Assembly: GCF_000716715.1 (NCBI RefSeq)
Contig: NZ_JNYJ01000062.1
Span: forward strand, 1 to 42,629
Direction: 5' to 3'
Length of the DNA: 42,629 nt
From: Dactylosporangium aurantiacum
GTDB lineage: Bacteria; Actinomycetota; Actinomycetes; Mycobacteriales; Micromonosporaceae
Part shown: piece by piece, positions 23,692-42,484 of the stretch
How positions within the stretch are numbered: position 1 is the first letter of the stretch
Layout of the letters: each line of letters begins with the position of its first letter
Made by a program: the position numbers and the translations under genes
The notes under the pieces: model-generated
Databases searched by the model: none
What the model was told of the DNA's origin: nothing
The model's input: only the letters and a program-made list of their open reading frames with translations

Positions 23692-24315
23692 TCACTCCAG
23701 GCGGCGCAGGGCCTCGCTCATGTCGACGACGTCGGCGTACTTGGCGTCGAGGTCGAACAGGTTCGCCTCGTGCGGGCCGGGGGCCCGGTCGGCGCACGCC
23801 TCGCGCACGACCATCGGCCGGAAGCCGTGCTGCAGCGCGTCGACGGCGCTGGCCCGCACGCAGCCGGAGGTCGAGTACCCGCCGACGACGACGGTGTCGG
23901 CGCGCCGGGCGGTCAGCCAGGCGGCGAGCGCGGTGCCGGCGAACGCGCTCGCGTGGTGCTTGCGTACGACGAGGTCCCCGGGCGCCGGGGCGAGCTCGGG
24001 CGGCAGCGCGGCGAGGGGCGAGCCGTCGGCGAAGACCCGCAGCCCGGGGACCTTCGTGGCGAACAGCGGCGCCTCGGCGCACGTCTCGTCGGCGAAGCCG
24101 ACGGCGGTGAACGCGACCGGCCGGCCACCGGCCCGGGCCGCGCCGAGCAGCGACGTCATCGCGGTGAGGGCGGCGGCCGCCGTCGCGCAGAACAGCGGCG
24201 AGCCCGGCGACAGGTACGCCAGCACCGGGTCCACGAGCAGCAGGGCGGGGCGCTCGCCCCAGCCGAGCCGCCGGGCGAACCCGGCACCGGCGTAGTCGGC
24301 GTCCAGACCGGACAT
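23692..24315 (-). CDS. Isochorismatase-like cysteine amidohydrolase (N-carbamoylsarcosine/maleamate amidase type)
   Basis: 207-residue hydrolase with the Asp-Lys-Cys triad of the family: LLLVDPVLAYL (Asp), VVRKHHASAFAGT (Lys) and GGYSTSGCVRASAVDALQ with Cys152. The C-terminal VREACADRAPGPHEANLFDLDAKYADVV is very close to N-carbamoylsarcosine amidohydrolase and to maleamate amidohydrolase of nicotinate breakdown, rather than to true isochorismatases. The expected reaction is hydrolysis of a carbamoyl or amide group with release of ammonia. Its ATG overlaps the stop of the CoA-transferase gene, so the two are co-translated. A hydantoinase-like gene nearby would make a fitting preceding ring-opening step (inference). 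Confidence 0.85.
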   Translation of the reverse strand: MSGLDADYAGAGFARRLGWGERPALLLVDPVLAYLSPGSPLFCATAAAALTAMTSLLGAARAGGRPVAFTAVGFADETCAEAPLFATKVPGLRVFADGSPLAALPPELAPAPGDLVVRKHHASAFAGTALAAWLTARRADTVVVGGYSTSGCVRASAVDALQHGFRPMVVREACADRAPGPHEANLFDLDAKYADVVDMSEALRRLE

Positions 24316-25508
24316 CAGACGACGCCGTCCACGCGCAGCTTGTCCAGGTCGTCGGCGGTCAGGCCGAGCAGGCCGCCGTACACGTCGGTGTTGTGCTGCC
24401 CGAGCGTGGGCCCGGCCCAGCGGATCTCGCCGGGGGTGTCGGACAGGCGGGGCGCGGGGGCCTGCATGGGCAGCGCCCCGAAGTCCGGATGCGGTACGTC
24501 CACAATGGACTTCCGGGCGGCGAAGTGCGGGTCGGCGAGCATGTCGGCGGGGCGGTAGATCTTGCCGGCCGGTACCCCGGCGGCGTGCAGCAGCGCGAGC
24601 GTCTCGTCCGCGGGCAGGGTCGCGGTCCAGGCGGCGATGAGCTCGTCGAGCTCCTGCTGGTTGGCGCCGCGGGCACCGTGCGTGGCGTAGCGGGGGTCGG
24701 CGGCCAGCGCCGGGCGGCCCATCACCTCGCACAGTCGCGCGAAGACGGTGTCGCGGTTGCCGGCGATGAGGATGTCGACGCCGTCGGCGGTCGGGTAGGC
24801 GTTGCTCGGCGCGACGTTGGGCAGGATCGCGCCGGTGCGTTCGCGCTGGTAGCCGGCGACGACCCACTCCGGCAGCAGCGACTCCATGTACGTGAGGACG
24901 GCCTCGTAGATGGCGGAGTCGACGACCTGGCCGCGGCCGGTGCGCTCGCGGGCGTGCACCGCCATCACGGCGCCGTAGGCGGCCATGGTGCCGGCGAGCG
25001 CGTCGCCGAGGGAGACCCCGACGCGGCTGGACGGGCGGTCGGGCTCGCCGGTGACGTGCCGGATGCCGCCCATCGCCTCGCCGATCGAGCCGAACCCGGC
25101 GCGCGGGGCGTACGGGCCGGTCTGCCCGTACCCGGTGACCCGCACGAGCACGAGCCGCGGGTTGATCGCGGACAGCTCCGGGTACCCGAGCCCCCAGCGC
25201 TCCAGGGTGCCCGGCCGGAAGTTCTCCACGAGGACGTCGGACTCCGCGACGAGCCGCCGCACCAGGTCCTGCCCGGCGGGGGTGCGCAGGTTGCAGGTGA
25301 CGGACTTCTTGTTGCGCGCCACGACCGGCCACCACAGCGACTGGCCGTGCGGCTTCTCCCGGCCCCACTCGCGCATCGGGTCGCCCTTGCCGGGATCTTC
25401 GAGCTTGATGACCTCGGCGCCGAAGTCGCCGAGCAGCTGCCCGGCGAACGGGCCGGCGAGCAGCGTCCCGGTCTCCAGGACACGGATGTCGGACAGAGGA
25501 CCAACCAT
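24315..25508 (-). CDS. Family III CoA-transferase, second copy
   Basis: 397-residue CaiB/BaiF-family CoA-transferase. It shows RVLETGTLLAGPFAGQLLGDFGAEVIKLE at the N-terminus, VARNKKSVTCNLRT, SDVLVENFRPGTLERWGLGY, and SLGDALAGTMAAYGA where the nucleophilic Asp is expected. The ATG at 25508 lies only eight bases after a TACACT -10 candidate on the minus strand, so the mRNA may be leaderless. It is divergent from the HMG-CoA-lyase-like gene, with an operator-like element between them, and coupled to the amidase gene. It would activate a carboxylic acid intermediate for the lyase step. Confidence 0.92.
   Translation of the reverse strand: MVGPLSDIRVLETGTLLAGPFAGQLLGDFGAEVIKLEDPGKGDPMREWGREKPHGQSLWWPVVARNKKSVTCNLRTPAGQDLVRRLVAESDVLVENFRPGTLERWGLGYPELSAINPRLVLVRVTGYGQTGPYAPRAGFGSIGEAMGGIRHVTGEPDRPSSRVGVSLGDALAGTMAAYGAVMAVHARERTGRGQVVDSAIYEAVLTYMESLLPEWVVAGYQRERTGAILPNVAPSNAYPTADGVDILIAGNRDTVFARLCEVMGRPALAADPRYATHGARGANQQELDELIAAWTATLPADETLALLHAAGVPAGKIYRPADMLADPHFAARKSIVDVPHPDFGALPMQAPAPRLSDTPGEIRWAGPTLGQHNTDVYGGLLGLTADDLDKLRVDGVV
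24498..24510. repeat. Interspersed palindrome GTCCA(C/T)TGTGGAC, copy in CoA-transferase gene
   Basis: On the minus strand GTCCATTGTGGAC; related copies occur at 17761-17772 and 31092-31104. It encodes Ile-Val-Asp using the codon ATT, which is rare in this gene. Confidence 0.4.
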
Positions 25509-25565: not shown

Positions 25566-26495
25566 GTGACCGGAGTGGAGATCGTCGAGGTCGGCCCGCG
25601 GGACGGGCTGCAGAACGAGCGGATCCTGCTGCCGACCGAGGTGAAGGTCGACTACATCACGCGCGCCCTGGACGCCGGCATCCGCCGGATGGAGGCGACC
25701 GCCTTCGTGCACCCCGCCCGGGTACCGCAGATGGCCGACGCGGAGGCGGTGATGGCGGCGGTACCGCGCCGCGCCGGCGTCACCTACATCGGCCTGGTGC
25801 TCAACCGGCGCGGCCTGGACCGGGCCCTCGCCGCCGGGGTCGACGAGGTCAACGTCGTGGTGGTCGCCTCCGACGAGTTCTCCCGCCGCAACCAGGGCAC
25901 CGGCGTGCGGGAGGCCCTCGACGCGTGGCACGACATCGCCGGCGGCGCCGCGGCGGCCGGGATCCCCGCGTCGCTGACGATCGCGGCGGCGTTCGGCTGC
26001 CCGTTCACCGGCGAGGTCCCCGCCGACCGGGTGCAGGCGATCGCCGCCGCGGCGCTGCCGGGCGGCCCGCGGGAGATCGCGATCGCCGACACGATCGGCG
26101 TCGGCGTGCCGACCCAGGTGCGTGCGCTCGTGGCGGCGATCCGTGAGGTGGCCGCGGACGTGCCGCTGCGCGCGCACTTCCACAACACCCGTAACACCGG
26201 CTACGCCAACGCCGTCGCGGCCCTGGAGGCCGGCGTGGCGGCGCTCGACGCCAGCACCGGCGGGATCGGCGGCTGCCCGTTCGCGCCCCGGGCCACCGGC
26301 AACATCGCCACCGAGGACCTCACGTACCTGCTGGACCGCATGGGCGTGCGGACCGGCCTGGACCTGCCCGCGCTCGCCGCCACCGGCACCTGGATCGGCG
26401 AGCGGCTCGGCACCGCCGCGCCGGCACTGCTCGGCCGCACCGACACGTTTCCACCATCGCCGCCGAATGGAAGCGGTGTCTCCGTCACGCCGTGA
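25566..26495 (+). CDS. HMG-CoA lyase-like enzyme (DRE-TIM metallolyase)
   Basis: 309-residue TIM-barrel lyase. Key residues are present: VGPRDGLQNE with catalytic Arg12-Asp13, the EATAFVHPARVPQMAD segment, HFHNTRNTGYAN with metal-binding histidines, and GGIGGCPFAPRATGNIATEDL with the active-site Cys loop. It is therefore predicted to be active on a 3-hydroxy-3-methylglutaryl-CoA-like thioester, releasing acetyl-CoA or another acyl-CoA plus an oxo acid. The GTG start is fixed by GGAGG six bases upstream. Divergent from a CoA-transferase that could make its substrate. A bidirectional terminator lies downstream. Confidence 0.92.
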   Translation: MTGVEIVEVGPRDGLQNERILLPTEVKVDYITRALDAGIRRMEATAFVHPARVPQMADAEAVMAAVPRRAGVTYIGLVLNRRGLDRALAAGVDEVNVVVVASDEFSRRNQGTGVREALDAWHDIAGGAAAAGIPASLTIAAAFGCPFTGEVPADRVQAIAAAALPGGPREIAIADTIGVGVPTQVRALVAAIREVAADVPLRAHFHNTRNTGYANAVAALEAGVAALDASTGGIGGCPFAPRATGNIATEDLTYLLDRMGVRTGLDLPALAATGTWIGERLGTAAPALLGRTDTFPPSPPNGSGVSVTP

Positions 26496-28114: not shown

Positions 28115-28118
28115 GGGG

Positions 28119-28148
28119 TTTCCATTTTGGCGGTAGTGCCGCTAGGCT
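28119..28148 (+). promoter_or_regulatory. Candidate promoter giving a leaderless CoA-transferase mRNA
   Basis: TTTCCA (28119-28124), 18 bases, TAGGCT (28143-28148). The GTG start is only seven bases after the -10 box and there is no ribosome binding site, so transcription probably begins at or next to the start codon. Confidence 0.4.
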
Positions 28149-28154
28149 CTGCTG

Positions 28155-29351
28155 GTGGAACCGCAGCCCGCCCTGGCAGGGATCACCGTCGTGGACGTGT
28201 CCACCCTGTTCGCCGGCCCCCTCGCCGCCACCATCCTCGGGGACTTCGGCGCCGACGTCATCAAGATCGAGCATCCGGTGAAGGGTGATCCTGCCCGCGG
28301 CCACGGCCCCGCCAAGGACGGCGTGCCGCTGTGGTGGACGCTGCTCGGCCGCAACAAGCGCTGCGCCACCCTGAACCTGTCCCGCCCCGCCGGCGCGGAC
28401 CTGCTCAAGCGCCTGCTGGCCGGGGCCGACGTGCTGATCGAGAACTTCCGGCCCGGCACGCTGGAGCGCTGGGGGCTCGGCCCGGACGTCCTCGCCGAGG
28501 TCAACCCGCGGCTCGTCGTCGCGCGGGTCACCGCGTTCGGCCAGTTCGGCCCGTACGCGGCCCGGCCCGGCTTCGGCACCCTCGCCGAGGCGATGAGCGG
28601 CTTCGCGGCCATCACCGGCGAGCCCGGCGGCCCGCCGACCCTGCCGCCGTTCGGCCTGGCCGACGGCATCGCCGCCATCGCCACCGCGCAGGCCGTGACC
28701 ACCGCCCTGCTCGCCCGGCACGCCACGGGCACCGGGCAGGTGGTCGACGTGGCCATCATCGAGCCCATCCTGACCCTGCTCGGGATGCAGCCCATGGTGT
28801 ACGACCAGCTCGGCGTCATCCAGGCACGCACCGGCAACCGGAGCGTGAACAACGCGCCCCGCAACACGTACCGCAGCCGCGACGGCCGATGGCTGGCCGT
28901 GTCGACCTCCGCCCAGGCCGTCGCGGAGCGGGTGCTGCGGCTCGTCGGGCATCCGGAGGTCGTCGACGAGCCGTGGTTCGCCGCCGGCGCGACCCGCGCC
29001 CAGCACGCCGAACTGCTCGACGCCTACGTCGGGGACTGGATCGCGGCCCGCGACGCCGACGAGGTGATCGCCGCGTTCGAGGCCGCCGAGGCCGCGGTCG
29101 CGCCGATCAACGACATCGCCGGCGTGTTCGCCGACCCGCAGTACGCGGCGCTGGGCACCCTGCGGGCCGTCGACGACCCGGTCCTCGGGCCGGTGCGCAT
29201 GCAGAACGTGCTGTACCGGCTGTCGGCCACCCCCGGCGACATCCGCTGGACCGGCCCGGCGCTCGGCGCCCACAACGACGAGATCTACCGCGACCGGCTC
29301 GGCCTCGCCGACGACGACATCGCCGGGCTGCGCGCCGACGGGGTGCTGTGA
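28155..29351 (+). CDS. Family III CoA-transferase, third copy
   Basis: 398-residue CaiB/BaiF-family enzyme: TVVDVSTLFAGPLAATILGDFGADVIKIE, GRNKRCATLNLSRPAG, ADVLIENFRPGTLERWGLGP, and GLADGIAAIATAQ carrying the likely nucleophilic Asp. It heads a three-gene operon with the cyclase-family hydrolase (stop and start overlap, TGATG) and the MmgE/PrpD gene. It is clearly related to the copy at 24315-25508 but is not a recent duplicate. GTG 28155 is taken as start because the family N-terminus follows at once; the message may be leaderless. It presumably forms the CoA thioester of a dicarboxylic or hydroxy acid. Confidence 0.92.
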   Translation: MEPQPALAGITVVDVSTLFAGPLAATILGDFGADVIKIEHPVKGDPARGHGPAKDGVPLWWTLLGRNKRCATLNLSRPAGADLLKRLLAGADVLIENFRPGTLERWGLGPDVLAEVNPRLVVARVTAFGQFGPYAARPGFGTLAEAMSGFAAITGEPGGPPTLPPFGLADGIAAIATAQAVTTALLARHATGTGQVVDVAIIEPILTLLGMQPMVYDQLGVIQARTGNRSVNNAPRNTYRSRDGRWLAVSTSAQAVAERVLRLVGHPEVVDEPWFAAGATRAQHAELLDAYVGDWIAARDADEVIAAFEAAEAAVAPINDIAGVFADPQYAALGTLRAVDDPVLGPVRMQNVLYRLSATPGDIRWTGPALGAHNDEIYRDRLGLADDDIAGLRADGVL

Positions 29352-30148
29352 TGCCCGACTTCCTCGCCGGTGCCACGGTCCTGGACCTCGCGCAGCCGAT
29401 GCGGCGCGGCATGCCCCAGTCGCCGAACCATCCCCCGTTCCGGATGGCCCTCGAACGCCGCCACGGCGACCTGGTCCGCCCCGACGGCGGTTCGGCCGCG
29501 AACGAGATCGTCGTCACCGGCGGCCACGTCGGCACCCACGTCGATGCCCTCGCGCACGTGTCGCAGGACGGCGTGCTGCACGGCGGGGTGCCGGCCGCCT
29601 CCGTGCAGAGCCACCTCGGCTTCACCTCGCACGGCATCGAGTCCTTCGAGGTGTTCGTCGGCCGGGCCGCGGTCCTCGACGTGGCCCGGGTCCACGGCGT
29701 GCCCGTCCTGCCCGCCGGGTACGAGATCACCGCCGAGGACCTCGACGCCTGCGGCGTCGCCGTGCACCCCGGCGACGCCGTCCTCATCGGCACCGGCTGG
29801 TCGCGCCGCTGGGACGAGCCCGACGCGTTCGTCGGCCAGCGCGACGGCACCCCCGGCCCGGGCGTCGCCGCCGCCGCGTGGCTCGCCGCCCGCGGCGCGC
29901 GGGTCGTCGGCGGCGAGACGATCGCGTTCGAGCGCATCCCGCCCGGCCGCGGGCACGCGGTGCTGCCCGTGCACCGGCTGCTGCTGGTGGAGCGCGGCGT
30001 GCACATCGTGGAGACGATGCGGCTGCACCCGCTGCTGGACACCGGCGTCACCGAGTGCCTGCTGGTGCTCAACCCGCTGCCGATCGTCGGCGCCACCGGC
30101 GCCCCGGTCCGGCCCCTGGCCATCCTGCCCGCCGGCGGCACGGCGTGA
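29351..30148 (+). CDS. Cyclase-family hydrolase (kynurenine formamidase-like fold)
   Basis: 265-residue protein of the cyclase family (Pfam Cyclase; includes bacterial kynurenine formamidase and isatin hydrolase). The metal motif is plain: GGHVGTHVDALAHV (HxGTHxDxxxH, about residues 58-71). Other conserved parts are LDLAQPMRRGMPQSPNHPPF and DAVLIGTGWSRRWDEPDAF. Such enzymes hydrolyse amide or cyclic amide bonds using a divalent metal. Coupled on both sides (TGATG with the CoA-transferase, GTGA with MmgE/PrpD). It is the third possible C-N hydrolase of this island, which points to a nitrogen-containing substrate, without proving it. Confidence 0.9.
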   Translation: MPDFLAGATVLDLAQPMRRGMPQSPNHPPFRMALERRHGDLVRPDGGSAANEIVVTGGHVGTHVDALAHVSQDGVLHGGVPAASVQSHLGFTSHGIESFEVFVGRAAVLDVARVHGVPVLPAGYEITAEDLDACGVAVHPGDAVLIGTGWSRRWDEPDAFVGQRDGTPGPGVAAAAWLAARGARVVGGETIAFERIPPGRGHAVLPVHRLLLVERGVHIVETMRLHPLLDTGVTECLLVLNPLPIVGATGAPVRPLAILPAGGTA

Positions 30149-31581
30149 CGGCCCCGGGCCGCGACGGCGGCACCGCCGCGGGGCGTGACGGCGGCACGGC
30201 GGTGCGGCGGCTCGCCGAGTTCGCCGTCGCCTGCCGCGAGCGGCCGCTGCCGGCCGCGGTCGTCGCCGACGTGCCCGCCCGGGTCCTGGACATCCTCGGC
30301 CTGGCCCTCGCCGCGTACGGCGACCCCGACGCCGACGCCGCCCCCGCCGTGCTGCGCTCGGTGCGCCGGTGGGGCGGCACGGCCGAGGCGACCGTCATCG
30401 GCTCCGGCGACCGGCTCCCCGCCCCCGCGGCCGCGCTCGTCAACGGCACCCTCGCCCACTCGCTCGACTTCGACGACACGCACCTGCCGTCGGTGCTGCA
30501 CCCGTCCGCGTCCGTCGTGCCCGCCGCCCTCGCCACCGCCGAGGCGGCCGGCGCGTCCGGCGCCGCCGTGCTGGCCGCCGTCGCCGCCGGCGTGGAGCTC
30601 ACCGACCGGCTCGGCATGGCCGCCTACGACCCGGCCATCGCCAACTCCGTCTTCTTCGACCGCGGCCTGCACGCCACCTCGATCTGCGGCGCGATCGGCG
30701 CCGCGGCCGCGGCGGCGCTGCTGCTCGGCCTCGACGCGCCCGGGGTGGCCTCGGCGATGGGGGTCGCGGCCAGCATGGGCGCCGGGCTCATCGAGGCCAA
30801 CCGCACCGGCGGCACCGTCAAGAAGATGCACTGCGGCTGGGCCGCGCACGCCGGTGTGAGCGCCGCCTACCTCGCCGCCGACGGGCTCACCGGCCCGCCG
30901 ACCGTGCTGGAGGGCAGGTTCGGCTTCTTCAGCGCGTACACCGGCGGCCGCTGCGACGACAACGCGCTGCTCGGCGACCTCGGTGACCGGTGGGAGCTGC
31001 TGCGCACCGCGTTCAAGCCCTACCCGTCCAACCACTTCACCCACCCCGGCATCGACTGCGCCCTGGCGCTGCGCGCCGCCGGCCTGGACCCGTCCACTGT
31101 GGACTGGATCGAGCTCGGCGTGCCGGCCCCGACGCTGCGTACCATCGCCGAGCCGGCCGCGGAGAAGGTCCGTCCGCGCAGCACCTACCACGGGAAGTTC
31201 TCCGGCCCGTACACCGTCGCCACCGCCCTGCTCGGCGGCGGCGGCCTCGGCGTCGGCCTGGACGACTTCACCGGCCCCCTGGACCCTGCCCGGCTCGCCC
31301 TGGCCGCGAAGGTCCGGTGCGTCCCCGACGAGCGGGCCACGGCCATCTTCCCGCACGCGTTCGCCGCCGTCCTGCGGGTCGGCACCGCCGGCACCGTGCA
31401 CGAGCACCGCGTCGACGCGTCCCGCGGCAGCGCCGAGGCACCACTGTCCCCGGCCGACCTGGCCCGCAAGTTCACGGCCAACGCCGCCCGGGTCCTGTCA
31501 CCTCCGGCGGCCGAGGCCCTGGCCGCCCGCGCCACCGCCCTGGCCGACCTGCCGACCGTGGCCGCCCTGCTGCGAACCTGA
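30145..31581 (+). CDS. MmgE/PrpD-family dehydratase or decarboxylase
   Basis: 478-residue member of the family containing 2-methylcitrate dehydratase (PrpD) and cis-aconitate decarboxylase. The all-alpha N-terminal domain carries GTLAHSLDFDDTHLPSVLHPSASVVPAAL; the central HCGWAAHAGVSAAYLA and AFKPYPSNHFTHPGIDCALAL are typical. The first about 20 residues (TAPGRDGGTAAGRDGGTA) are a short low-complexity duplication and may not be translated if an in-frame GTG at 30201 is used. The reaction would be dehydration or decarboxylation of a tricarboxylic-type intermediate. Last gene of the CoA-transferase operon. Confidence 0.9.
   Translation: MTAPGRDGGTAAGRDGGTAVRRLAEFAVACRERPLPAAVVADVPARVLDILGLALAAYGDPDADAAPAVLRSVRRWGGTAEATVIGSGDRLPAPAAALVNGTLAHSLDFDDTHLPSVLHPSASVVPAALATAEAAGASGAAVLAAVAAGVELTDRLGMAAYDPAIANSVFFDRGLHATSICGAIGAAAAAALLLGLDAPGVASAMGVAASMGAGLIEANRTGGTVKKMHCGWAAHAGVSAAYLAADGLTGPPTVLEGRFGFFSAYTGGRCDDNALLGDLGDRWELLRTAFKPYPSNHFTHPGIDCALALRAAGLDPSTVDWIELGVPAPTLRTIAEPAAEKVRPRSTYHGKFSGPYTVATALLGGGGLGVGLDDFTGPLDPARLALAAKVRCVPDERATAIFPHAFAAVLRVGTAGTVHEHRVDASRGSAEAPLSPADLARKFTANAARVLSPPAAEALAARATALADLPTVAALLRT
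31092..31104. repeat. Interspersed palindrome GTCCACTGTGGAC, copy in MmgE/PrpD gene
   Basis: Perfect dyad with one central base. Encodes Ser-Thr-Val-Asp with the codon ACT, unusual for this gene. Same element as at 17761-17772 and, with one change, 24498-24510. Confidence 0.4.
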
Positions 31582-33851: not shown

Positions 33852-34700
33852 TCATGGGGCCAGGGTGAGCAGGCGGCGGGCGGCGCGGACGACCGCGGCG
33901 TCGACCATCCGGCCGTCGACGTCGACGAGCACGCCGGCGCCGGAGCCGACCGCGTCGTCGAAGCGGCGGACCAGGTCGGCGGCCGCGGCGAGCTCCTGCG
34001 GGGTCGGGGTGAAGACCTCGTTGACGACCTCGACCTGCGCCGGGTGGATGCACGCCCGGCCGAGGAACCCCAGCCGCCGCAACGCCACCGTCGAGGCGCG
34101 CAGCGCGGCCAGGTCGCGGTAGTCCGTGCTGACCGGCGCGACCGGCGGGGCGATGCCCGCGGCGGCGGCGGCCAGGACGACCTGGGAGCGGACGAAGAGC
34201 AGCTCGCGCTCGTCGGGGCCGAGGGTGACGCCGAGCTCGGCGCGCAGGTCGGCCTCGCCGATCTGCAGCCGGGCGACGCGGGGCGCGCGGGCGATGGCGG
34301 GCGCGGCGAGGACGGCGGCGGCGGACTCCAGCAGCGGCACGACCGCGATGGTGCCGACCGGCAGGCCGCACGCCTCCTCGGCGCCGGCGAGGGCCACGCC
34401 GAGCGCGGCGACCTGCGCCGGGCTGTCGGCCTTCGCCAGGCACACCCCGGCGAGGTTGGGGCCGGCGACGGCGCGCGCGTCGGCCTCGCCGGCCGGGCCG
34501 GTGTTGACCCGCACCCAGACGGCGGGGCGGCCGGTGGCGGGCAGCGCGCCGAGCCACTCGGCGACGAGCGCGCGGGCGCGGTCCTTGCCGGCGGCGGGCA
34601 CGGCGTCCTCGAGGTCGACGATGAGGGCGTCGGCGCCGCGGTGCAGGGCCTTGTCCAGCTTCTGCGGCGCGTCGCCGGGGACGTAGAGGTACGACCTCAT
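33852..34700 (-). CDS. CitE-like (HpcH/HpaI superfamily) acyl-CoA lyase
   Basis: 282-residue TIM-barrel lyase of the citrate lyase beta subunit family, which includes citramalyl-CoA, malyl-CoA and beta-methylmalyl-CoA lyases and thioesterases. Motifs: RSYLYVPGDAPQKLDKA, GADALIVDLEDAV, VRVNTG, VVPLLESAAAVLAA with the metal-binding Glu, IGEADLRAELG with the metal-binding Asp, and RACIHPAQVEVVNE at the end. No CitD or CitF partner is nearby, so it works alone on a soluble CoA thioester, cleaving it to acetyl- or propionyl-CoA plus an oxo acid. Preceded by a good promoter and an IclR2 operator candidate. Confidence 0.9.
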   Translation of the reverse strand: MRSYLYVPGDAPQKLDKALHRGADALIVDLEDAVPAAGKDRARALVAEWLGALPATGRPAVWVRVNTGPAGEADARAVAGPNLAGVCLAKADSPAQVAALGVALAGAEEACGLPVGTIAVVPLLESAAAVLAAPAIARAPRVARLQIGEADLRAELGVTLGPDERELLFVRSQVVLAAAAAGIAPPVAPVSTDYRDLAALRASTVALRRLGFLGRACIHPAQVEVVNEVFTPTPQELAAAADLVRRFDDAVGSGAGVLVDVDGRMVDAAVVRAARRLLTLAP

Positions 34701-34764: not shown

Positions 34765-34770
34765 GGACTT

Positions 34771-34787
34771 GTTTCGCACAGCGGATC
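34771..34787. promoter_or_regulatory. IclR2 operator candidate 3 (GTTTCGCACAGCGGATC)
   Basis: 13 of 17 bases match the copy at 36508-36524, though the right half is weak. It lies six bases upstream of the CitE promoter and in the leader of the divergent membrane protein gene. Confidence 0.45.
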
Positions 34788-34804
34788 AGTGTTTCCATTG
34801 CGCG

Positions 34805-35497
34805 ATGGGCTGGTGGATCCTGCTGCACCTCGTGCTGTTCGTGTTCTGGCTGGGCGGCGACCTCGGCGTCTTCTACTCCAGCCGGTTCGTCCTGCGACCC
34901 GACCTGCCGCCCGCCGCCCGCGACACGGCCCTGAAGATCATGGGCGGGCTGGACCTGGGCCCGAAGATCTGCCTGGTGCTGTTCCTGCCCAGCGGGGTCA
35001 CGCTGATGGCCCTGGACGCGCACGGCGCGGCGCTGGGCGGCTTCGAGCTGTTCCACTGGTGGACCGTGCTGCCGGTGTGGCTGTTCGCCCTCGGGTGGCT
35101 GTTCCTGACGGTCAAGGACCACCACGCGCCGGGACGGCACCCGCTGGTGCGGCGGGCCGACTGGGCCATCCGCATCGCGTTGATCCTCGTCCTGTACGCC
35201 CTGGCGGCGTACACGATCGTGGCGGACGAGCCGTTCGGCGTGTCGAGCAACCCGAAGTGGCTGGGCGCGAAGGTCGCCCTCTACGCCACGGCGATCGCGT
35301 GCGGCCTGGGCATCCGGCGCACCCTGCGCGGCTTCGCCGCGACGTACGGCGCGCTGATGACGACCGGCTCGACGCCGGAGGTGGAGCGCGCCCTGCGGCG
35401 GGCGGTGGACGGCTGCCTGCCCTACGTGTGGGGCATCTGGCTGTCCGTCCTGGCCGCCGCCGCGTTCGGCGTCCTCAAGCCCTGGATGCACGGCTGA
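34805..35497 (+). CDS. Uncharacterised multi-spanning membrane protein
   Basis: 230-residue protein with about six hydrophobic segments: WWILLHLVLFVFWLGGDLGVFY, ICLVLFLPSGVTLMAL, WWTVLPVWLFALGWLFLTV, IALILVLYALAAYTIV, KVALYATAIACGLGI and YVWGIWLSVLAAAAFGVL. Histidine and tryptophan residues near the membrane edges (LLHLV, LFHWW, DHHAPGRH) recall CopD/DUF2269-like or haem-associated membrane proteins, but the family is not certain. ATG 34805 is taken because it starts at the first helix. Divergent from the CitE-like gene and sharing its control region, so it may serve uptake or electron transfer in the pathway. Confidence 0.78.
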   Translation: MGWWILLHLVLFVFWLGGDLGVFYSSRFVLRPDLPPAARDTALKIMGGLDLGPKICLVLFLPSGVTLMALDAHGAALGGFELFHWWTVLPVWLFALGWLFLTVKDHHAPGRHPLVRRADWAIRIALILVLYALAAYTIVADEPFGVSSNPKWLGAKVALYATAIACGLGIRRTLRGFAATYGALMTTGSTPEVERALRRAVDGCLPYVWGIWLSVLAAAAFGVLKPWMHG

Positions 35498-35598: not shown

Positions 35599-36414
35599 TC
35601 AGCCCGGGTGGTAGCCGAGGTGACCGGAGACCCGGGCGGCCGCGGCGAGCAGCCGGTCGGCGCACTCCGACATGCGCGGCTTGAAGCGCGACAGCGGCCC
35701 GGCCGCCGACAGCACCGCGATGACGTGCCCGTCGTGGTCGAAGACCGGCGCGGCGATCGAGGCGGCGCCGACCTGGCGCTCCCCCATCGACGTGGCGTAG
35801 CCGCGGCGCTGGATGGCGGCCAGCTCCAGGCGCAGCGCCGCGTCCTCGACGATCGTCTTCTCCGTCAGCGCGGTGAGGGCGTGCTTGGCCAGGTACACCT
35901 CGATCTCGTCCTCGCCGAGGAAGGCCAGGAACGCCTTGGACGACGCGCCCGCGTGCAGCGGGTAGGGCGTGCCGAGCTGGACCTCCAGGCGCAGCTCCTG
36001 CTCCGGCACCACCTGGTCGACGTAGAGGCGCATGTCGCCGCGGCGGATGGACAGGGTGGCGGTCTCGCCGGTCTCCTCCGACAGCCGCCGCAGCTCCGGC
36101 GCGGCGATCGCCCGCAGGTCGGTGCGGGCCAGGTAGGCCCGGCCGAGCGCCACCGCGGCGTGGCCGAGCGCATACCGGCGGGTCGTCGGATCGACGGTCA
36201 CCAGGTCGCGGTTGCGCAGCGCGGTGAGGATGCGGTGCACCGCCGCCTTCGTGAGGCCGAGCTCGGCGGCGATCTCGGTGACACCGAGGTCGGGGCGCCC
36301 GACCCGGCCGAAGAGCAGCAGGACGTCCATGGCCCGCTCGACCGCCGCGATGGAGCGGCTGGCGGAGCCGTCGGCGTTGTCGGCGGAGGCCGCCGTCGTG
36401 GTGGTGGTCGACAC
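35599..36414 (-). CDS. IclR-family transcriptional regulator of the second catabolic island
   Basis: 271-residue regulator: a Thr/Ala/Ser-rich leader, then RSIAAVERAMDVLLLFG and the winged helix DLGVTEIAAELGLTKAAVHRILTALRNRDLV (about residues 42-72). The effector domain follows with GETATLSIRRGDMRLYVDQV and FDHDGHVIAVLSAAGPLSRFKP. Another IclR protein is at 3890, but the two are distant in sequence and each lies in its own island. It is encoded between the membrane protein gene and the flavin reductase operon and is divergent from the latter. Its start region carries an operator-like palindrome also found at four other promoters. The GTG start has no clear ribosome site, so translation may be leaderless. 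Confidence 0.93.
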   Translation of the reverse strand: MSTTTTTAASADNADGSASRSIAAVERAMDVLLLFGRVGRPDLGVTEIAAELGLTKAAVHRILTALRNRDLVTVDPTTRRYALGHAAVALGRAYLARTDLRAIAAPELRRLSEETGETATLSIRRGDMRLYVDQVVPEQELRLEVQLGTPYPLHAGASSKAFLAFLGEDEIEVYLAKHALTALTEKTIVEDAALRLELAAIQRRGYATSMGERQVGAASIAAPVFDHDGHVIAVLSAAGPLSRFKPRMSECADRLLAAAARVSGHLGYHPG

Positions 36415-36537: not shown

Positions 36538-37794
36538 GTGACGATCGACCCTGACACGTTCCGCTCGGTGCTCGCGCAGTGGCCGAGCGGCGTCAGCGTC
36601 GTGACCACCGTCGCGGGCGACGGCTGGCACGGCATGACCGCCAGCTCGTTCTCCAGTGTGAGCGTCGACCCGCCGCTGATCCTCGTCTGCCTCAACCGGC
36701 GCATCACCACCCACGCGCTCATCGAGGCCAGTGGCGTCTTCGCCGTCAGCGTCCTGGCCAAGGACCAGACGGTGATCGGGCGCCGCTTCGCCGGCCAGGA
36801 GCGCGTCGCCGACCGGTTCGCCGGCGGCGCCTGGCAGACCCGGGTGACCGGCGCGCCGGTGCTGACCGATGCCGTCGGCTGGCTCGACTGCCGGGTCGTG
36901 CACGCGTACGCCGGCGGTGACCACACCATCTTCGTCGGCGCGGTGCTCGGCGCCGCCACCGAGCGGGTCGTCGCGCCGCTGCTGTTCCACTCCCGGGCCT
37001 GGGGGCAGCTCGCCGACGTGCTGCCCGACGCGGTCGGCGTCGCCGACAGCGGCCTGCTGTCCGCGCTGCGCCACCACGCCGTGCCGGCCGGCGCCGCGGG
37101 CACCCTCGCCACCGCCCTGCGCGCCGCCGGGGTCCGTGTCCGGGTCCGCGACCCGCACGGCTGCCTGACCTCCGCCGGCGACCGCCGCACCGCGACCGCG
37201 CTGGTCGCCACCGCCGACGAGGTCGCCGACGCCGCGCTGGGCGGCGCCGGCGTGCTCGAGCTGCCCGCCGGCGACACCAGCGGCGGCGCCGCCGGCACCA
37301 GGCACATCCTGGAGGAGGCGCGCCGCTACGACATGACCGCGGCCTGCTGGCTGCCGGACGCGTTCGCGCCCGCCCGCGCCGGCGAGGTCCTGGCCGCCGT
37401 CGACGCGCTCGCCGCGCTCGGCTGCGACGAGATCGGCCTCGACGAGGGCGCCGAGGCCGCCTCCCCGCGCCAGGTCCGGGCGCTGCTGCAGGACGCGACC
37501 GTGCGCGCCTCGACCAGCCCGCGGCCGGTGTCGCTGCGGGTGCGCCTGCGCGACCGGCACGGCCTCGGCCTGGTCAACGCGCTGACCGCGATGAAGAGCG
37601 GGGTGCGGCACTTCGACACCACCCTGGGCGGCATCGACGGCGTCCTGGCCTGCGAGGACGTGCAGTTCCTCGCCGACCGCCTCGGCGTGGCCTGCGACAG
37701 CCCCCGCGCCGCCCTCGTCGCGGCCGCCGCCGACCTCGAACGACACCTGGGCGGCGCGCTGCCCGGCCGCACGTACCGCGTACCGATCTCCTGA
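36538..37794 (+). CDS. Flavin reductase domain fused to a degenerate HMG-CoA lyase-like domain
   Basis: 418 residues. The first about 160 are a complete flavin reductase-like FMN-binding domain (FRSVLAQWPSGVSVVTT, HGMTASSFSSVSVDPPLILVCL, RRFAGQERVADRFAGGAW, DHTIFVGAVL). It would supply reduced flavin to an oxygenase. The remaining about 255 residues end in ALGCDEIGLDE, LVNALTAMKSGVRHFDTTLGGIDG and ACEDVQFLADRLGV, matching the second half of HMG-CoA lyases. However, the metal-binding HFHDT motif reads RLRDRHG, the catalytic cysteine loop is missing and no RDGLQNE start is seen. This half is therefore probably inactive or altered. The frame is unbroken. GTG 36538 is chosen for its AGAGG eight bases upstream. 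Confidence 0.85.
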   Translation: MTIDPDTFRSVLAQWPSGVSVVTTVAGDGWHGMTASSFSSVSVDPPLILVCLNRRITTHALIEASGVFAVSVLAKDQTVIGRRFAGQERVADRFAGGAWQTRVTGAPVLTDAVGWLDCRVVHAYAGGDHTIFVGAVLGAATERVVAPLLFHSRAWGQLADVLPDAVGVADSGLLSALRHHAVPAGAAGTLATALRAAGVRVRVRDPHGCLTSAGDRRTATALVATADEVADAALGGAGVLELPAGDTSGGAAGTRHILEEARRYDMTAACWLPDAFAPARAGEVLAAVDALAALGCDEIGLDEGAEAASPRQVRALLQDATVRASTSPRPVSLRVRLRDRHGLGLVNALTAMKSGVRHFDTTLGGIDGVLACEDVQFLADRLGVACDSPRAALVAAAADLERHLGGALPGRTYRVPIS

Positions 37795-37808: not shown

Positions 37809-39086
37809 ATGGCACAGCTCACCGCCGACCGCCTGCTGGACGGCCTGTCCGACGCCGAGCGCGGGCGGGCCGAACGGGTCGAATCCGTGCTGCCCGCGCT
37901 GCGCGACGCCGCGGCCGGCGCCGACACCGAGGGCCGCTTCCCGGTCGAGCACGTGGCCCGCCTGCGCGACGCGGGGCTGCTCGGCCTGGTCGTGCCGCAG
38001 GAGTACGGCGGCCTCGGCGGCACCCTGCGCGACCTCGCCGCCGCCACCTTCGCCATGGGCACCGCCTGCGGCTCGACGGCCCTGGCCTTCTTCTTCCACA
38101 ACACCAGCGCCTCCCGCGGGCTGCTGCCCCTGGAGGCGATCAGGGCCGGGCTGTTCGAGCCCGGCGAGATCCCGGCCGTGCGGGCGTTCGCCGAGAAGGT
38201 CCTCACCCGCATGGCCGACGGCGTCTGGCTGGCCAACTTCGCCAGCGAGTCGGTGAAGAGCGCCGGCGCCAACATCTCCATCAGCACCACCGCCACCAAG
38301 GTCGACGGCGGGTGGCTGCTCAACGGCGAGAAGTCCTTCGGCTGCGCCACCGGCGTCGCCGACTACTACCTCACCACCGCCCGCCTGGAGGGCACCGAGA
38401 CCGCCGCCGGGCTCGCCACGTTCTTCGTGCCCCGCGACGCCGCCGGGGTCGGGGAGCGCCCCACCTGGGACGCCCTCGGCATGCGGGCCACCGCCAACCA
38501 GGGCATCACCCTCAAGGACGTGTTCATCGCCGACGACGAGGCGCTCACCGTGCCCGGCGCGTTCGTGCGGATGCTGCAGGTCAGCCGCGGCTCGTTCGTC
38601 GGCAACCAGCTCGCCATCTCCGCGGTGTACCTCGGCGCCGCCCAGTCGGCGTACGACACCGCGCTCGCCGCGACCACCGGAAAGACGTTCGCCGACACCG
38701 GCCGGCCCGTCGCCAGCAGCCCCATGCACCAGGTGCTGTTCGGTGACATGACGGAGCGGCTGGAGACCGCGTACCTGTGGATCCGCCGCCAGCTGGAGCT
38801 GGAGACGTCCGAGCCGCCGCTGCGCGGCAAGGACGAGGTGTTCCGCCAGTGGCGGATGGCGAAGGGCTCCATCACCGAGGCCTGCTTCGACGTCGCCGTC
38901 GGCGCGCTGAAGTGCACCGGCACGTCCGGCACCGCCAACACCGGCGTCATCGCCCGCGCCGTGCGCGACATCGCGATGTCGCTGGTCATGACGTTCCCCG
39001 CGGAACGCGGCCGGCTCGAGGCGGCCAACATCGTCACCACCGGCGCGGAGCACGCGCTGTTCGCCAACGTCGCGAAGGAGCGCTGA
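37809..39086 (+). CDS. Acyl-CoA dehydrogenase-fold flavoprotein (possible flavin-dependent monooxygenase)
   Basis: 425-residue protein with the acyl-CoA dehydrogenase fold: LRDAGLLGLVVPQEYGGLGG, GWLLNGEKSFGCATGVADYYLTTARLEG, and a C-terminal helical bundle with GALKCTGTSGTANTGVIARAVRDIAMSLVM. The catalytic glutamate motif of true dehydrogenases (YEGT) is not evident, and the preceding gene supplies a flavin reductase domain. Together these favour an HsaA/DszC-like two-component monooxygenase, although a dehydrogenase remains possible. The start ATG lies 11 bases after GAAGGG. Second gene of the operon beginning at 36538; the aldehyde dehydrogenase ATG follows the stop by one base. Confidence 0.85.
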   Translation: MAQLTADRLLDGLSDAERGRAERVESVLPALRDAAAGADTEGRFPVEHVARLRDAGLLGLVVPQEYGGLGGTLRDLAAATFAMGTACGSTALAFFFHNTSASRGLLPLEAIRAGLFEPGEIPAVRAFAEKVLTRMADGVWLANFASESVKSAGANISISTTATKVDGGWLLNGEKSFGCATGVADYYLTTARLEGTETAAGLATFFVPRDAAGVGERPTWDALGMRATANQGITLKDVFIADDEALTVPGAFVRMLQVSRGSFVGNQLAISAVYLGAAQSAYDTALAATTGKTFADTGRPVASSPMHQVLFGDMTERLETAYLWIRRQLELETSEPPLRGKDEVFRQWRMAKGSITEACFDVAVGALKCTGTSGTANTGVIARAVRDIAMSLVMTFPAERGRLEAANIVTTGAEHALFANVAKER

Positions 39087-39087
39087 G

Positions 39088-40509
39088 ATGCCACCGGCCA
39101 GGTCCCTCGTCGACGGTGCCTGGGCGCCGGCCACCCGGACGCTCACCGGCACCCTGGAGGACCCGGCGACCGGCGCGGTCCTCGGCCCGCGGCTGGGCAG
39201 CACCCGCGCCGAGGTCGAGGCCGCGCTCGCCGCCGCCGACCGCGCCGCCGCGTCCTGGGCCGCCGTGCCACCCGGCGAGCGCGCCGACCTCCTCGACGCC
39301 TGCGCCGACGCCCTGGAGGCGACCGTCGGCCGGATCGTCGCCGTGGAGAGCGCGAGCACCGGCGTACCGATCCGGCAGGCGACCCCGCTCGGGTTCATCG
39401 TCACCGGCTCGTTCCGCCTCGCCGCCGCCCAGCTGCGCGAGGGGTGGCTCACCCGCACCGTCACCCGCGACGACGGCAACCCGGTGACCGTGGAGCTGCT
39501 GCCGTGGGGGCCCGCGCTGTGCCTGGTGCCGTGGAACGCCCCGGCGCCGATGGCCGCGCACAAGGCGGCGAACGCCCTCGCCGCCGGCTGCCCGACCATC
39601 GTCAAGCCCAGCGAGTACGCGCCCGCCGGCACCCAGCTGCTGGCCGAGACGATCGCCGGGCTGCTGCCGCCGGGCGTACTGCAGCTGCTGCACGGCGGGC
39701 CGGAGGTCGGCGCAGCGCTCGTGGGCGACCCGCGGGTGCGGGCCGTGTCGTTCACCGGCGGCGTCCCCGGCGGGCGGGCCGTCGCCGGGCAGTGCGCCTC
39801 CGGGCTGAAACCCGTCCAGCTCGAGCTCGGCGGCAACAACCCCCTGGTCGTGCTGCCCGACGCCGACGTCGACGCGGCCGCCCGCGCCGCCGTCGACCTG
39901 CTCACCACCCTCAACGGCCAGTGGTGCCGGGCGCTCGGCCGGCTCATCGCACCCCACGGCCTGCTGCCCCGGCTGCTCGCCGCGATCGGTGAGCGCCTCG
40001 CCGCCCTGCGCGTCGGCGACCCCGCCGACCCGGCGACCGAGCTCGGCCCGCTCATCCACAGCGGGCACCGCGCGCTCGTCGCGGCCCGCCTGCTCGACCT
40101 CGGCGGCAAGGCGCACACGTACACCGACGTGCCCGCCGGCGGGAACTTCTTCGCCCCTGCGCTCGTCACCGGCGCCGCCGAGGAGCCGGCCCGGCACGAG
40201 ATCTTCGGGCCGGTCGCCACGGTGCACGGCTACGACACCGTCGAGCAGGCGGTGGCGCTCGCCAACGACACCGCGTACGGCCTCGAGGGCTACGTGTTCG
40301 GCACCGACGAGGCGGCCGCACTCGCCGTCGCCCGGCGCATCCGGGCCGGTGAGGTGAAGGTCAACGGCTCCTCGGTGATGAGCCTGCATCTGTTCACCCC
40401 GCGCCCGGCGTGGGGCGTCTCCGGCCTCGTCGAGGAGGGCACCGCCGAGACCCTGCGGTTCTTCACCAACTCGCGGGTCACCGGCGTCGAGAACGGCTTC
40501 GCCCTGTGA
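39088..40509 (+). CDS. Aldehyde dehydrogenase (NAD(P)-dependent)
   Basis: 473-residue aldehyde dehydrogenase superfamily member with the general-base Glu246 in LELGGNN and the catalytic Cys280 in NGQWCRALGR, spaced as in the family. VPWNAPAPMAAHKAANALAAGCPTIVKPSEYAP and HEIFGPVATVHGYDT are the cofactor and C-terminal signatures. It would oxidise an aldehyde formed by ring cleavage or side-chain breakdown to an acid, which could then enter a CoA-transferase step. Stop and next start overlap (GTGA). The substrate is not predictable. Confidence 0.93.
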   Translation: MPPARSLVDGAWAPATRTLTGTLEDPATGAVLGPRLGSTRAEVEAALAAADRAAASWAAVPPGERADLLDACADALEATVGRIVAVESASTGVPIRQATPLGFIVTGSFRLAAAQLREGWLTRTVTRDDGNPVTVELLPWGPALCLVPWNAPAPMAAHKAANALAAGCPTIVKPSEYAPAGTQLLAETIAGLLPPGVLQLLHGGPEVGAALVGDPRVRAVSFTGGVPGGRAVAGQCASGLKPVQLELGGNNPLVVLPDADVDAAARAAVDLLTTLNGQWCRALGRLIAPHGLLPRLLAAIGERLAALRVGDPADPATELGPLIHSGHRALVAARLLDLGGKAHTYTDVPAGGNFFAPALVTGAAEEPARHEIFGPVATVHGYDTVEQAVALANDTAYGLEGYVFGTDEAAALAVARRIRAGEVKVNGSSVMSLHLFTPRPAWGVSGLVEEGTAETLRFFTNSRVTGVENGFAL

Positions 40510-41357
40510 GGCGGCTGCTGGCCGGCCCCGGCGTCACCCACCTGCCGGGCGTGTACGACCCGCTCACCGCCGCCCTCGCCGTGCGCGCCGGGTTCCCCGC
40601 CGTGCACCTGTCGGGGGCGGCCGTCTCGGCGCTCGCCCTCGGGCTGCCGGACCTCGGCTACGTCCACGGCACCCACATCGCGGACCGGGCCGCGACCCTG
40701 ATGCCCGCGCTGGGCGGGGTGCCGGTGCTGGCCGACGCGGACACCGGCTACGGCAACCCGCTGCACGCGGTGTGGACGGCCCGCCGGTACGCGGCCGCGG
40801 GGGTGGCCGGGCTGCACCTGGAGGACCAGGTCAGCCCGAAACGCTGCGGGCACCTGGCCGGCAAGGAACTGCTGGACGCCGGTGCGGCGGCGGCGAAGGT
40901 ACGCGCGGTCGCCGAGGCCGGCACCGGTCTGGTGCTCGTCGCGCGGACCGACGCGTTCACCGTCACCGGGCTCGACGACGCGATCGTCCGTTGCCGCGTC
41001 TACCTGGACGCGGGCGCCGACGCGGTCTTCGTCGAGGGCGTCACCGGCGCCGACGAGCTGGCGGCCGTGCACGCGGCGCTGCCGGGCGTCCCCCTCGTCG
41101 TGAACCGCTCCGAAGCGTCGGGATCCGACGCCTTCCTTGACGACGCCCGCCTGGCCGAGCTGGGGGTGCGCTTCGTGCTGCACCCGGTCGCCCCGCTGCT
41201 CGCCGCCCTCTGCGCCGCGCGAGCCGCGTACGCGGCGATCGCCGCCGACGGCAGCGCCGACACGGTCGGCCGGCTGCCGTGGGACGCGTTCACCGGCCTC
41301 GTCGACCAGCCCGCGGCGCTCGCCCTGGACGCCCGCTACTCGGAGGTGCCCGCGTGA
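40506..41357 (+). CDS. Isocitrate lyase/PEP mutase-family enzyme
   Basis: 283-residue TIM-barrel enzyme of the family that includes methylisocitrate lyase (PrpB), 2,3-dimethylmalate lyase, oxaloacetate hydrolase and PEP mutase. Signatures: PVLADADTGYGN (metal binding), LHLEDQVSPKRCGHLAGKEL with the catalytic-loop Cys114 (C-C lyase type KRCGH), and VLVARTDAF. The cysteine loop favours a 2-hydroxy acid C-C lyase rather than a mutase. GTG 40506 overlaps the aldehyde dehydrogenase stop. It is a further C-C bond-cleaving enzyme in this island and needs no CoA. Confidence 0.9.
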   Translation: MRRLLAGPGVTHLPGVYDPLTAALAVRAGFPAVHLSGAAVSALALGLPDLGYVHGTHIADRAATLMPALGGVPVLADADTGYGNPLHAVWTARRYAAAGVAGLHLEDQVSPKRCGHLAGKELLDAGAAAAKVRAVAEAGTGLVLVARTDAFTVTGLDDAIVRCRVYLDAGADAVFVEGVTGADELAAVHAALPGVPLVVNRSEASGSDAFLDDARLAELGVRFVLHPVAPLLAALCAARAAYAAIAADGSADTVGRLPWDAFTGLVDQPAALALDARYSEVPA

Positions 41358-42484
41358 AGGTCATCGTCGCCGGTGCCGGGCCGGTCGGGCTCACCGCCGC
41401 GCTCACCCTGCACCGCCTCGGCGTCGACGTCACCGTGCTGGAGGCCGGCGACGACCTCGCCACCCAGTCGCGGGCCTCGACGTTCCACCCGCCGTCGCTG
41501 GAGATGCTCGCCGGTCTCGGGGTCCTGCCCGCGCTGCTGCGGCAGGGCCTGGTCGCGCCGCGCTTCCAGTACCGCGAACGCGGCGGGGCGGTCATCGCCG
41601 AGCTGGACATGTCGCTGCTCGCCGGCGACACGCCGTACCCGTTCCGGCTGCAGTGCGAGCAGAGCAAGCTGACCCGCGTCCTGCTGCCGCTGCTACCGCC
41701 CGGCACCGTCCACTTCGGACGGGCGGTGACCGGGCTGGCGCAGGACCCGTCCGGGGTGACCGTGCACGCCGGCGAGGACTTCCGCGGCGACTGGCTGATC
41801 GGCGCCGACGGCGCGAACTCCGCGGTGCGCCGGTCGCTGTTCGGCGACGCGTTCGACGGGATCACCTACCCGGACCGGTTCCTGGTCGGCTCCACCGACG
41901 AGGACCTGGCCGCGCTGCTGCCCGGCATCGCCGAGGTCAACTACCTGTTCGACCCCGTCGAGTGGCTGGTGCTGCTGCGCACCCCGGACCACTGGCGGGT
42001 GCTGCTGCCGACCCCGGCCGACACCCCCGACGACGCCGAGCTGGCGCGGCTGCCGCAGCGGCTGCTGGGCGTCGCGGACCCCGGGCGGCCGTGGCGGGTC
42101 GCGCACACCACCCTGTACCGGGTGCACCAGCGGGTCGCCGCGTCGTTCCGGGTGGGGCGGGTGCTGCTCGCCGGGGACGCGGCCCACATCAACAACCCGC
42201 TCGGCGGGATGGGCATGAACTCCGGCATCCACGACGCCGTCCTGCTCGCCAAGGCGGTCACGACCGGCGACGACGACCTCATCACCGCCACCGCCGAGGC
42301 CAGGCGCACCGTCGCCCGCGACTACGTGCAGAAGACCACCCACGGCAACTGGGAGAAGCTGCGCGCCGGCGGCGCCTCCGCGTACGCCGACGAGCTGCGC
42401 GCCCTCGCCGCCGACCCGGCCGCGGCCCGCGCCTACCTGCTGCGCTCCTCGATGATCGCCTCGCTGCGCGAGGTGGCGGCGTGA
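41354..42484 (+). CDS. FAD-dependent aromatic-ring hydroxylase (PHBH/UbiH family)
   Basis: 376-residue class A flavoprotein monooxygenase. The FAD/NAD motif GAGPVG (residues 7-12), the middle motif GADGANSAVRR (about 153-163) and GDAAHINNPLGGMGMNSGIHDA (about 274) are all present. Such enzymes hydroxylate a phenol, hydroxybenzoate, pyridine or similar ring with NAD(P)H and oxygen; 3-hydroxyphenylpropionate- and 2-methyl-3-hydroxypyridine-carboxylate-type hydroxylases belong here. It is the likely ring-activating step of the island. GTG 41354 overlaps the previous stop (GTGA). Its own stop overlaps a GTG that begins a repeated sequence at 42481. Confidence 0.93.
   Translation: MKVIVAGAGPVGLTAALTLHRLGVDVTVLEAGDDLATQSRASTFHPPSLEMLAGLGVLPALLRQGLVAPRFQYRERGGAVIAELDMSLLAGDTPYPFRLQCEQSKLTRVLLPLLPPGTVHFGRAVTGLAQDPSGVTVHAGEDFRGDWLIGADGANSAVRRSLFGDAFDGITYPDRFLVGSTDEDLAALLPGIAEVNYLFDPVEWLVLLRTPDHWRVLLPTPADTPDDAELARLPQRLLGVADPGRPWRVAHTTLYRVHQRVAASFRVGRVLLAGDAAHINNPLGGMGMNSGIHDAVLLAKAVTTGDDDLITATAEARRTVARDYVQKTTHGNWEKLRAGGASAYADELRALAADPAAARAYLLRSSMIASLREVAA

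What the first reader, a model, noticed from the sequence alone, without database searches (positions are those of the whole stretch)
36538..37794. Flavin reductase fused to a lyase-like domain that has lost its catalytic residues
The first about 160 residues are a normal flavin reductase domain. The last half follows HMG-CoA lyase (GCDEIGLDE, NALTAMKSGVRHFDTTLGGIDG, CEDVQFLADRLGV) but reads RLRDRHG where the metal-binding HFHDT stands, and lacks the catalytic cysteine loop. The fusion is in one unbroken frame at the head of an oxygenase operon. I know of no described protein of this architecture. The lyase half may have become a scaffold, or a sensor or delivery module for a CoA-linked substrate.
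Basis: partly seen in the sequence, partly recalled or inferred. Interest (0 to 1): 0.72.

Follow-up and report, generated by a model that had tools for sequence, protein, structure and literature searches.

The report
Flavin reductase with dead lyase domain
A bacterial enzyme that supplies reduced flavin carries a second half shaped like a lyase that has lost its catalytic machinery; it recurs in many actinobacteria, in a gene cluster that usually also holds a relative of the plant chlorophyll-breakdown enzyme RCC reductase.

The parts
36538..37017 (+). Flavin reductase domain, residues 1-160; GGDHTIFVG motif kept
   Evidence: Pfam PF01613, 148.6 bits; G127, D128, H129 identical in 131 of 131 rows, G126 in 130
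37018..37794 (+). HMG-CoA-lyase-type barrel without catalytic residues, residues 161-418 plus stop
37543..37554 (+). RLRD (residues 336-339), in place of the HxH metal site
   Evidence: Profile alignment to intact lyases, HFHN; both His in 0 of 131 rows
37630..37659 (+). Short turn GIDGVLACED (365-374), where lyases carry the Cys/Asn loop
   Evidence: hhalign gap; turn is 10 residues in 129 of 131 rows
37477..37479 (+). Invariant Arg314, in the helix after strand 6
   Evidence: 131 of 131 rows; helix 310-325
37594..37602 (+). Invariant Lys353-Ser354-Gly355, end of the helix before strand 8
   Evidence: 131 of 131 rows; helix 344-353
37809..39086 (+). Acyl-CoA-dehydrogenase-fold (group D type) flavin monooxygenase, putative partner oxygenase
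   Evidence: Pfam; PDB hits 3m9v FAD-dependent oxidoreductase, nitrososynthase 3mxl, DnmZ, DszC, and acyl-CoA dehydrogenases; next to the reductase gene in 34 of 37 loci
39088..40509 (+). Aldehyde dehydrogenase
   Evidence: Pfam PF00171
40506..41357 (+). PEP mutase/isocitrate lyase superfamily protein
   Evidence: Pfam PF13714, tested as 40449-41357
41354..42484 (+). FAD-dependent aromatic-type monooxygenase
   Evidence: Pfam PF01494, tested as 41279-42484
35599..36414 (-). IclR-type regulator, divergent from the operon
   Evidence: Pfam PF01614
34805..35497 (+). Conserved neighbour of about 230 aa, no Pfam family above cut-off
   Evidence: (as 34769-35497)
25566..26495 (+). Intact HMG-CoA-lyase-like gene with RDGLQ, HFHN and GGCPFAPRATGN: comparison copy, recurrent in sister loci
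   Evidence: 302 bits, cut-off 246; sequence; contexts
24315..25508 (-). Family III CoA-transferase, recurrent with the intact lyase
   Evidence: Pfam PF02515
23692..24315 (-). Isochorismatase-fold hydrolase, recurrent with the intact lyase
   Evidence: Pfam PF00857

Best explanation
It is the reductase component of a two-component flavin monooxygenase. The N-terminal half oxidises NAD(P)H and hands reduced flavin to the oxygenase encoded directly downstream (37809-39086). The C-terminal half is a pseudoenzyme: an HMG-CoA-lyase barrel that can no longer bind the catalytic metal or cleave C-C bonds. It is kept as an in-cis accessory module that gates or tunes the reductase, most likely by packing against it and responding to a pathway metabolite. 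This is how the unrelated MarR domain of Acinetobacter HpaC works. The host locus is probably a catabolic cluster for bilin-like or chlorophyll-derived compounds. Shown: fusion, predicted fold, loss of catalytic residues, conservation, operon, co-occurrence with an RCC-reductase homologue. Inferred: reductase activity, partner pairing, gating, effector and pathway.
For: One frame in a large conserved family. Full lyase fold with the HxH pair, the Cys/Asn loop and RDG absent in 131 of 131 rows. Reductase GDH motif identical in 131 of 131. Both halves at dN/dS below 1 in 10 of 10 pairs examined (not all independent): barrel 0.23-0.72, reductase 0.055-0.50. Kept in three genomes of 1.4-1.7 Mb. 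Monooxygenase gene next, same strand, in 34 of 37 loci. The four operons with a barrel-free reductase or none form one clade (100/99) inside the fused ones, so the fusion is most simply ancestral and the barrel dispensable (midpoint root). Their oxygenases show no excess of changes at otherwise conserved sites (1 site, against 0-14 in six other clades), as expected for an in-cis module rather than an oxygenase docking platform. pTM 0.85 suggests a defined packing of the two halves (inference, no inter-domain error was shown). [quoted passage not shown] RCC-reductase co-occurrence.
Against: No activity, ligand or complex has been tested. The former pocket side includes the least conserved part (mean conservation 0.40 for residues 200-238 and 0.34 for 239-266, against 0.74 for 331-375), and one clade has lost about two strand-helix units of the barrel; both speak against a classical pocket sensor. 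The barrel evolves faster than the reductase in 10 of 10 pairs. The oxygenase comparison rests on four sequences and cannot exclude docking. The Arg residues replacing the metal histidines are not universal (R336 85 of 131, R338 71 of 131). In the three small genomes the fused gene is not adjacent to the monooxygenase gene. Two of 30 named genomes with the operon (L015 Streptosporangium amethystogenes, L017 Nonomuraea sp. PA05) gave no PF06405 match.
Confidence: 0.45

Rival explanations
1. Docking scaffold: the dead barrel is a protein-protein platform that holds the monooxygenase (or the aldehyde dehydrogenase) next to the reductase so that reduced flavin or product is passed directly.
For: Gene adjacency in 34 of 37 loci. 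The invariant residues R314 and K353-S354-G355 (131 of 131 rows) lie in or just after helices rather than at the former active site, and they survive in the shortened forms.
Against: Operons without the barrel have oxygenases with no excess of changes at conserved sites. The fused gene is unlinked from the oxygenase gene in three small genomes.
Confidence: 0.25
2. Structural element: the barrel only stabilises the reductase dimer or flavin site and neither senses nor docks.
For: Invariant residues in helices, high pTM, tolerance of shortening in one clade.
Against: Reductases without the barrel stand in the same operon position (L040, G361). A domain of about 200-250 residues is costly in 1.4-1.7 Mb genomes, yet it is kept.
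Confidence: 0.15
3. New metal-free enzyme: the barrel has taken up a different chemistry with new residues.
For: Full barrel fold; conserved polar residues near strand ends: E298 in 120 of 131 rows, E/D303 in 123 of 131, R202 in 121 of 131.
Against: Among the barrel positions tabulated, the only ones identical in 131 of 131 rows lie in or just after helices; the barrel loses strands in one clade.
Confidence: 0.1
4. Passive relic: a formerly active fused lyase that is decaying with no present function.
For: The barrel evolves faster than the reductase in 10 of 10 pairs; it is shortened or absent in some lineages.
Against: dN/dS below 1 in 10 of 10 pairs; four residues invariant in 131 rows; kept in small genomes. 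No row with an intact lyase half was seen among 131.
Confidence: 0.05

Closest known systems
Acinetobacter baumannii HpaC (C1), reductase of 4-hydroxyphenylacetate 3-hydroxylase, PDB 5zc2/5zyr
   Same: Flavin reductase of the same family followed by a C-terminal accessory domain; partner of a two-component oxygenase; among the matches
   Different: C-terminal domain is MarR-like, not a lyase barrel; there the effector is known (PMC10816480, passages)
HMG-CoA lyase (human 2cw6; B. subtilis 1ydo)
   Different: Metal site, catalytic Cys/Asn loop and RDG motif absent; far below the curated lyase cut-off (40 against 246 bits)
Stand-alone flavin reductases of two-component systems (PheA2 1rz0, BorF 5cho, SgcE6 4hx6, CtcQ 8ct0)
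   Same: N-terminal domain, up to 42% identity in Foldseek alignments
   Different: Chains of about 150-200 residues without a barrel
StyA2B, natural oxygenase-reductase fusion of Rhodococcus opacus 1CP (PMC6165268, passages read)
   Same: A flavin reductase fused to a second module of its pathway
   Different: There the partner is the oxygenase itself
Plant red chlorophyll catabolite reductase (PDB 2zxk, 3agb), for the co-occurring gene
   Same: Best PDB match of the cluster's RCC-reductase-like protein, E 8e-10
   Different: Remote; bacterial; activity unknown

Membership tests
Flavin reductase-like (PF01613) | Profile match over the domain above the curated cut-off | tested here: met
   148.6 bits, cut-off 27
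Flavin reductase-like (PF01613) | Conserved GDH motif | tested here: met
   GDH in 131 of 131 rows; that it marks the family is recalled
Flavin reductase-like (PF01613) | NAD(P)H-dependent flavin reduction | not testable with these tools
   Needs an assay
HMG-CoA lyase | Lyase barrel fold | tested here: met
HMG-CoA lyase | Curated family score (NF004283, cut-off 246 bits) | tested here: not met
   40.1 bits; the intact neighbour scores 302
HMG-CoA lyase | HxH metal ligands | tested here: not met
   Both His in 0 of 131 rows, one in 18
HMG-CoA lyase | Catalytic Cys/Asn loop (GGCPxAxxxxGN) | tested here: not met
   Turn of 10 residues in 129 of 131 rows, 11 and 6 in the others
HMG-CoA lyase | RDG motif after strand 1 | tested here: not met
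   0 of 131 rows
Two-component group D flavin monooxygenase system | Flavin reductase gene beside an acyl-CoA-dehydrogenase-fold oxygenase gene | tested here: met
   Window and 34 of 37 loci
Two-component group D flavin monooxygenase system | Reductase supplies the oxygenase | not testable with these tools
   Needs reconstitution
HpaC-like reductase with autoinhibitory sensor domain | C-terminal MarR domain | tested here: not met
   C-terminal half is modelled as a lyase barrel
HpaC-like reductase with autoinhibitory sensor domain | Ligand relieves inhibition of the reductase | not testable with these tools
   Needs kinetics

The most novel reading that the evidence does not exclude
The dead lyase barrel is a metabolite-responsive gate on the reductase of an undescribed actinobacterial pathway that takes apart bilin-like or chlorophyll-derived tetrapyrroles, with an RCC-reductase homologue near its entry and imide, diacid and CoA steps at its end. 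It would be, as far as I know, the first lyase pseudoenzyme used to control a flavin monooxygenase.
Probability: 0.17. Interest if true: 0.85.

Novelty: new variant of a known kind. Interest (0 to 1): 0.58.

Why it matters
The best-described flavin reductase with an extra domain (HpaC) showed that such a domain can control flavin reduction. Here a whole lyase barrel has been recruited and retained across several actinobacterial families, a clean case of an enzyme turned into an accessory part. Its operon goes with a relative of the plant enzyme that reduces red chlorophyll catabolite in 12 of 12 sampled class genomes and 28 of 30 named genomes. How bacteria mineralise chlorophyll breakdown products is, to my knowledge, open; this locus makes the question testable by growth and knock-out experiments in named isolates (Dactylosporangium, Nonomuraea, Actinomadura).

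Full report
What is there. The frame 36538-37794 (+) encodes 418 residues without a stop; GTG 36538 is preceded by a GAGG 8 bases upstream. Pfam finds Flavin_Reduct at residues 15-157 (148.6 bits, cut-off 27) and HMGL-like at 255-375 (31.1 bits, cut-off 29). NCBIfam models of reductase subunits match between residues 2 and 158 but none reaches its cut-off; hydroxymethylglutaryl-CoA lyase matches 283-414 with 40.1 bits against a cut-off of 246. PDB sequence hits are flavin reductases for the first half and mainly HMG-CoA lyases and homocitrate synthases for the second.

Loss of the lyase machinery. Profile-profile alignment with nine intact lyases of the window and sister loci (E 5e-21) puts HFHN of the lyase opposite RLRD (residues 336-339) and leaves a gap where the lyase has its Cys/Asn loop. 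Across 131 family rows (122 database proteins and nine translated from loci) no row keeps both histidines, 18 keep one, none has RDG near strand 1, and the loop is a 10-residue turn in 129 of 131; the other two have 11 and 6 residues. The reductase GDH motif is identical in 131 of 131. Among the positions tabulated in the barrel, R314 and K353-S354-G355 are identical in 131 of 131; they sit in or just after helices 310-325 and 344-353. Mean conservation is 0.76 for residues 6-160, 0.40 for 200-238, 0.34 for 239-266 and 0.74 for 331-375; the other barrel segments lie at 0.51-0.58. So selection holds the region around helices 6-7 and strand 7 most strongly, not the old active site as a whole.

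Family and selection. A search of 5.8 billion proteins gave 323 hits among capped candidates, of which 120 were listed; the named ones are actinobacteria (Dactylosporangium, Nonomuraea, Actinomadura, Streptosporangium, Nocardioides, Mumia, Streptomyces and others), mostly called 'flavin reductase' or a variant, some hypothetical or named by domain. Nei-Gojobori dN/dS in ten pairs (several share a sequence; one pair is of the shortened form): barrel 0.23-0.72, reductase 0.055-0.50; both below 1 in 10 of 10 and the barrel higher in 10 of 10. The barrel is thus constrained but faster. It is kept in three genomes of 1.4-1.7 Mb (open frames of 376-384 aa).

Operon. In the 34 loci from named genomes, 30 hold the gene downstream of the reductase: L009-L031 and L034-L040 (among them L040 with a barrel-free reductase and L039 with a broken frame). 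In 30 of 30 the next gene, same strand, is the acyl-CoA-dehydrogenase-fold monooxygenase, with gaps of -17 to 184 bases. Not counted: L032 and L042 (contig ends), L033 (gene joined to the oxygenase by an apparent internal deletion) and L041 (an Anaerolineae reductase outside the operon type). Four sampled genomes (L065-L068) show the same order; in three small genomes the two genes are apart, so 34 of 37 in all; the window itself and G361 (barrel-free, also adjacent) are not in that count. The recurring set is: uncharacterised 230-aa protein, IclR regulator, fused reductase, monooxygenase, aldehyde dehydrogenase, in some loci a PEP-mutase/isocitrate-lyase homologue, FAD monooxygenase, second aldehyde dehydrogenase, Dabb protein, carbon-nitrogen hydrolase, RCC-reductase homologue (PF06405), chlorophyllase-like hydrolase, Rieske oxygenase. 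The window's contig ends after the FAD monooxygenase; contig C73 of the same genome begins with the second aldehyde dehydrogenase and continues with Dabb, carbon-nitrogen hydrolase, RCC-reductase homologue, hydrolase and Rieske genes, so it is the likely continuation, inferred by order.

Tetrapyrrole link. PF06405 is found in 15 of 394 class genomes and in 0 of 14 control genomes; the 15 include all 12 with the monooxygenase, in 10 of 12 on the same contig within about 10 kb of it (the window's genome and G259 have it on another contig). The other three are small genomes 60-86% complete. If genomes were independent the chance would be about 2e-20; they are not, so this is only a measure of tightness. 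Of the 30 named loci, 15 show the gene in the fetched stretch; of the 15 other genomes, 13 have it elsewhere, so 28 of 30, the exceptions being L015 and L017. The protein's best PDB match is Arabidopsis RCC reductase, E 8e-10, then a plastid ferredoxin bilin reductase, E 2e-7. The 'chlorophyllase' label is weak: in the window's own genome this protein is just a generic hydrolase. The Rieske protein is nearest SxtDIOX, SxtT and methylxanthine demethylases, not a proven pheophorbide oxygenase. In the window are also an isochorismatase-fold hydrolase, a dihydropyrimidinase/allantoinase-type amidohydrolase, CoA-transferases, an intact HMG-CoA lyase homologue, a MmgE/PrpD protein and a CitE homologue. 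Together these would suit cleavage of cyclic imides to dicarboxylic acids and their CoA esters, as expected for maleimide fragments of tetrapyrroles; this last step is inference from general knowledge. No substrate has been shown.

Mechanism. I judge an in-cis accessory role most likely. Precedent: in Acinetobacter HpaC a C-terminal MarR domain inhibits the reductase until the substrate binds (PMC10816480, passages). Here the barrel can be lost without visible change in the oxygenase: one site conserved elsewhere changed in the four barrel-free or reductase-free operons, against 0-14 in six comparison clades. That fits a module acting on its own reductase better than one docking the oxygenase. 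A pocket sensor is weakened by the poor conservation of much of the pocket side. Docking, a structural role, new catalysis and decay remain as rivals with the weights given.

Novelty. Searches listed no paper on the fusion; none that I recognise on a bacterial RCC-reductase operon. In the passages seen, PMC10151467 treats RCC reductases as the outgroup of bilin reductases and reports pre-PcyA enzymes of heterotrophic bacteria in other gene clusters (heme oxygenase, Fe-S, V4R and globin genes). I file the fusion as a new variant of a known kind (flavin reductase with a C-terminal accessory domain); the locus around it may deserve more attention than the fusion.

Noticed in passing
L058:6234-7028 (contig C73 of the window's genome), class sample and named genomes: Homologue of red chlorophyll catabolite reductase (PF06405) in the same operon type; in 15 of 394 class genomes, including all 12 with the monooxygenase, and in 28 of 30 named genomes with the operon
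   Followed up: partly
window 23692-31581 and 33852-34700: Isochorismatase-fold hydrolase, CoA-transferases, intact HMG-CoA lyase homologue, dihydropyrimidinase-type amidohydrolase, cyclase, MmgE/PrpD and CitE homologues: looks like an imide-to-diacid-to-CoA route
   Followed up: partly
G083, G032, G004 (L062-L064, L070-L072): Actinomycete genomes of 1.4-1.7 Mb carry much of the same gene set with the fused reductase and three to four PF06405 matches each
   Followed up: partly
L033:4107-5573: In Actinomadura sp. KC345 the reductase is joined in frame to a later part of the monooxygenase: an internal deletion or an assembly collapse
   Followed up: no
L039:10001-11248: In Actinomadura sp. CNU-125 the fused gene matches in three pieces that overlap or are out of frame: frameshifts or sequencing errors
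   Followed up: no
window 5728-6950 (-): LigB-type extradiol dioxygenase (6087-6950) followed by a small gene without Pfam hit (5728-6090), next to a citrate-synthase C-domain protein and a CoA-transferase: perhaps a second ring-cleavage cluster
   Followed up: no
L058:9249-9980 and 9977-10903: Two genes after the Rieske oxygenase without any Pfam family at E 0.001; the first is about 25% like the RCC-reductase homologue
   Followed up: partly
L015 and L040, downstream of the second aldehyde dehydrogenase: In place of the carbon-nitrogen hydrolase and RCC-reductase genes, L040 reads like an ABC importer (binding protein, two permeases, ATPase, by eye) and L015 has genes of similar sizes; L015's genome has no PF06405 match, L040's has one elsewhere
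   Followed up: no
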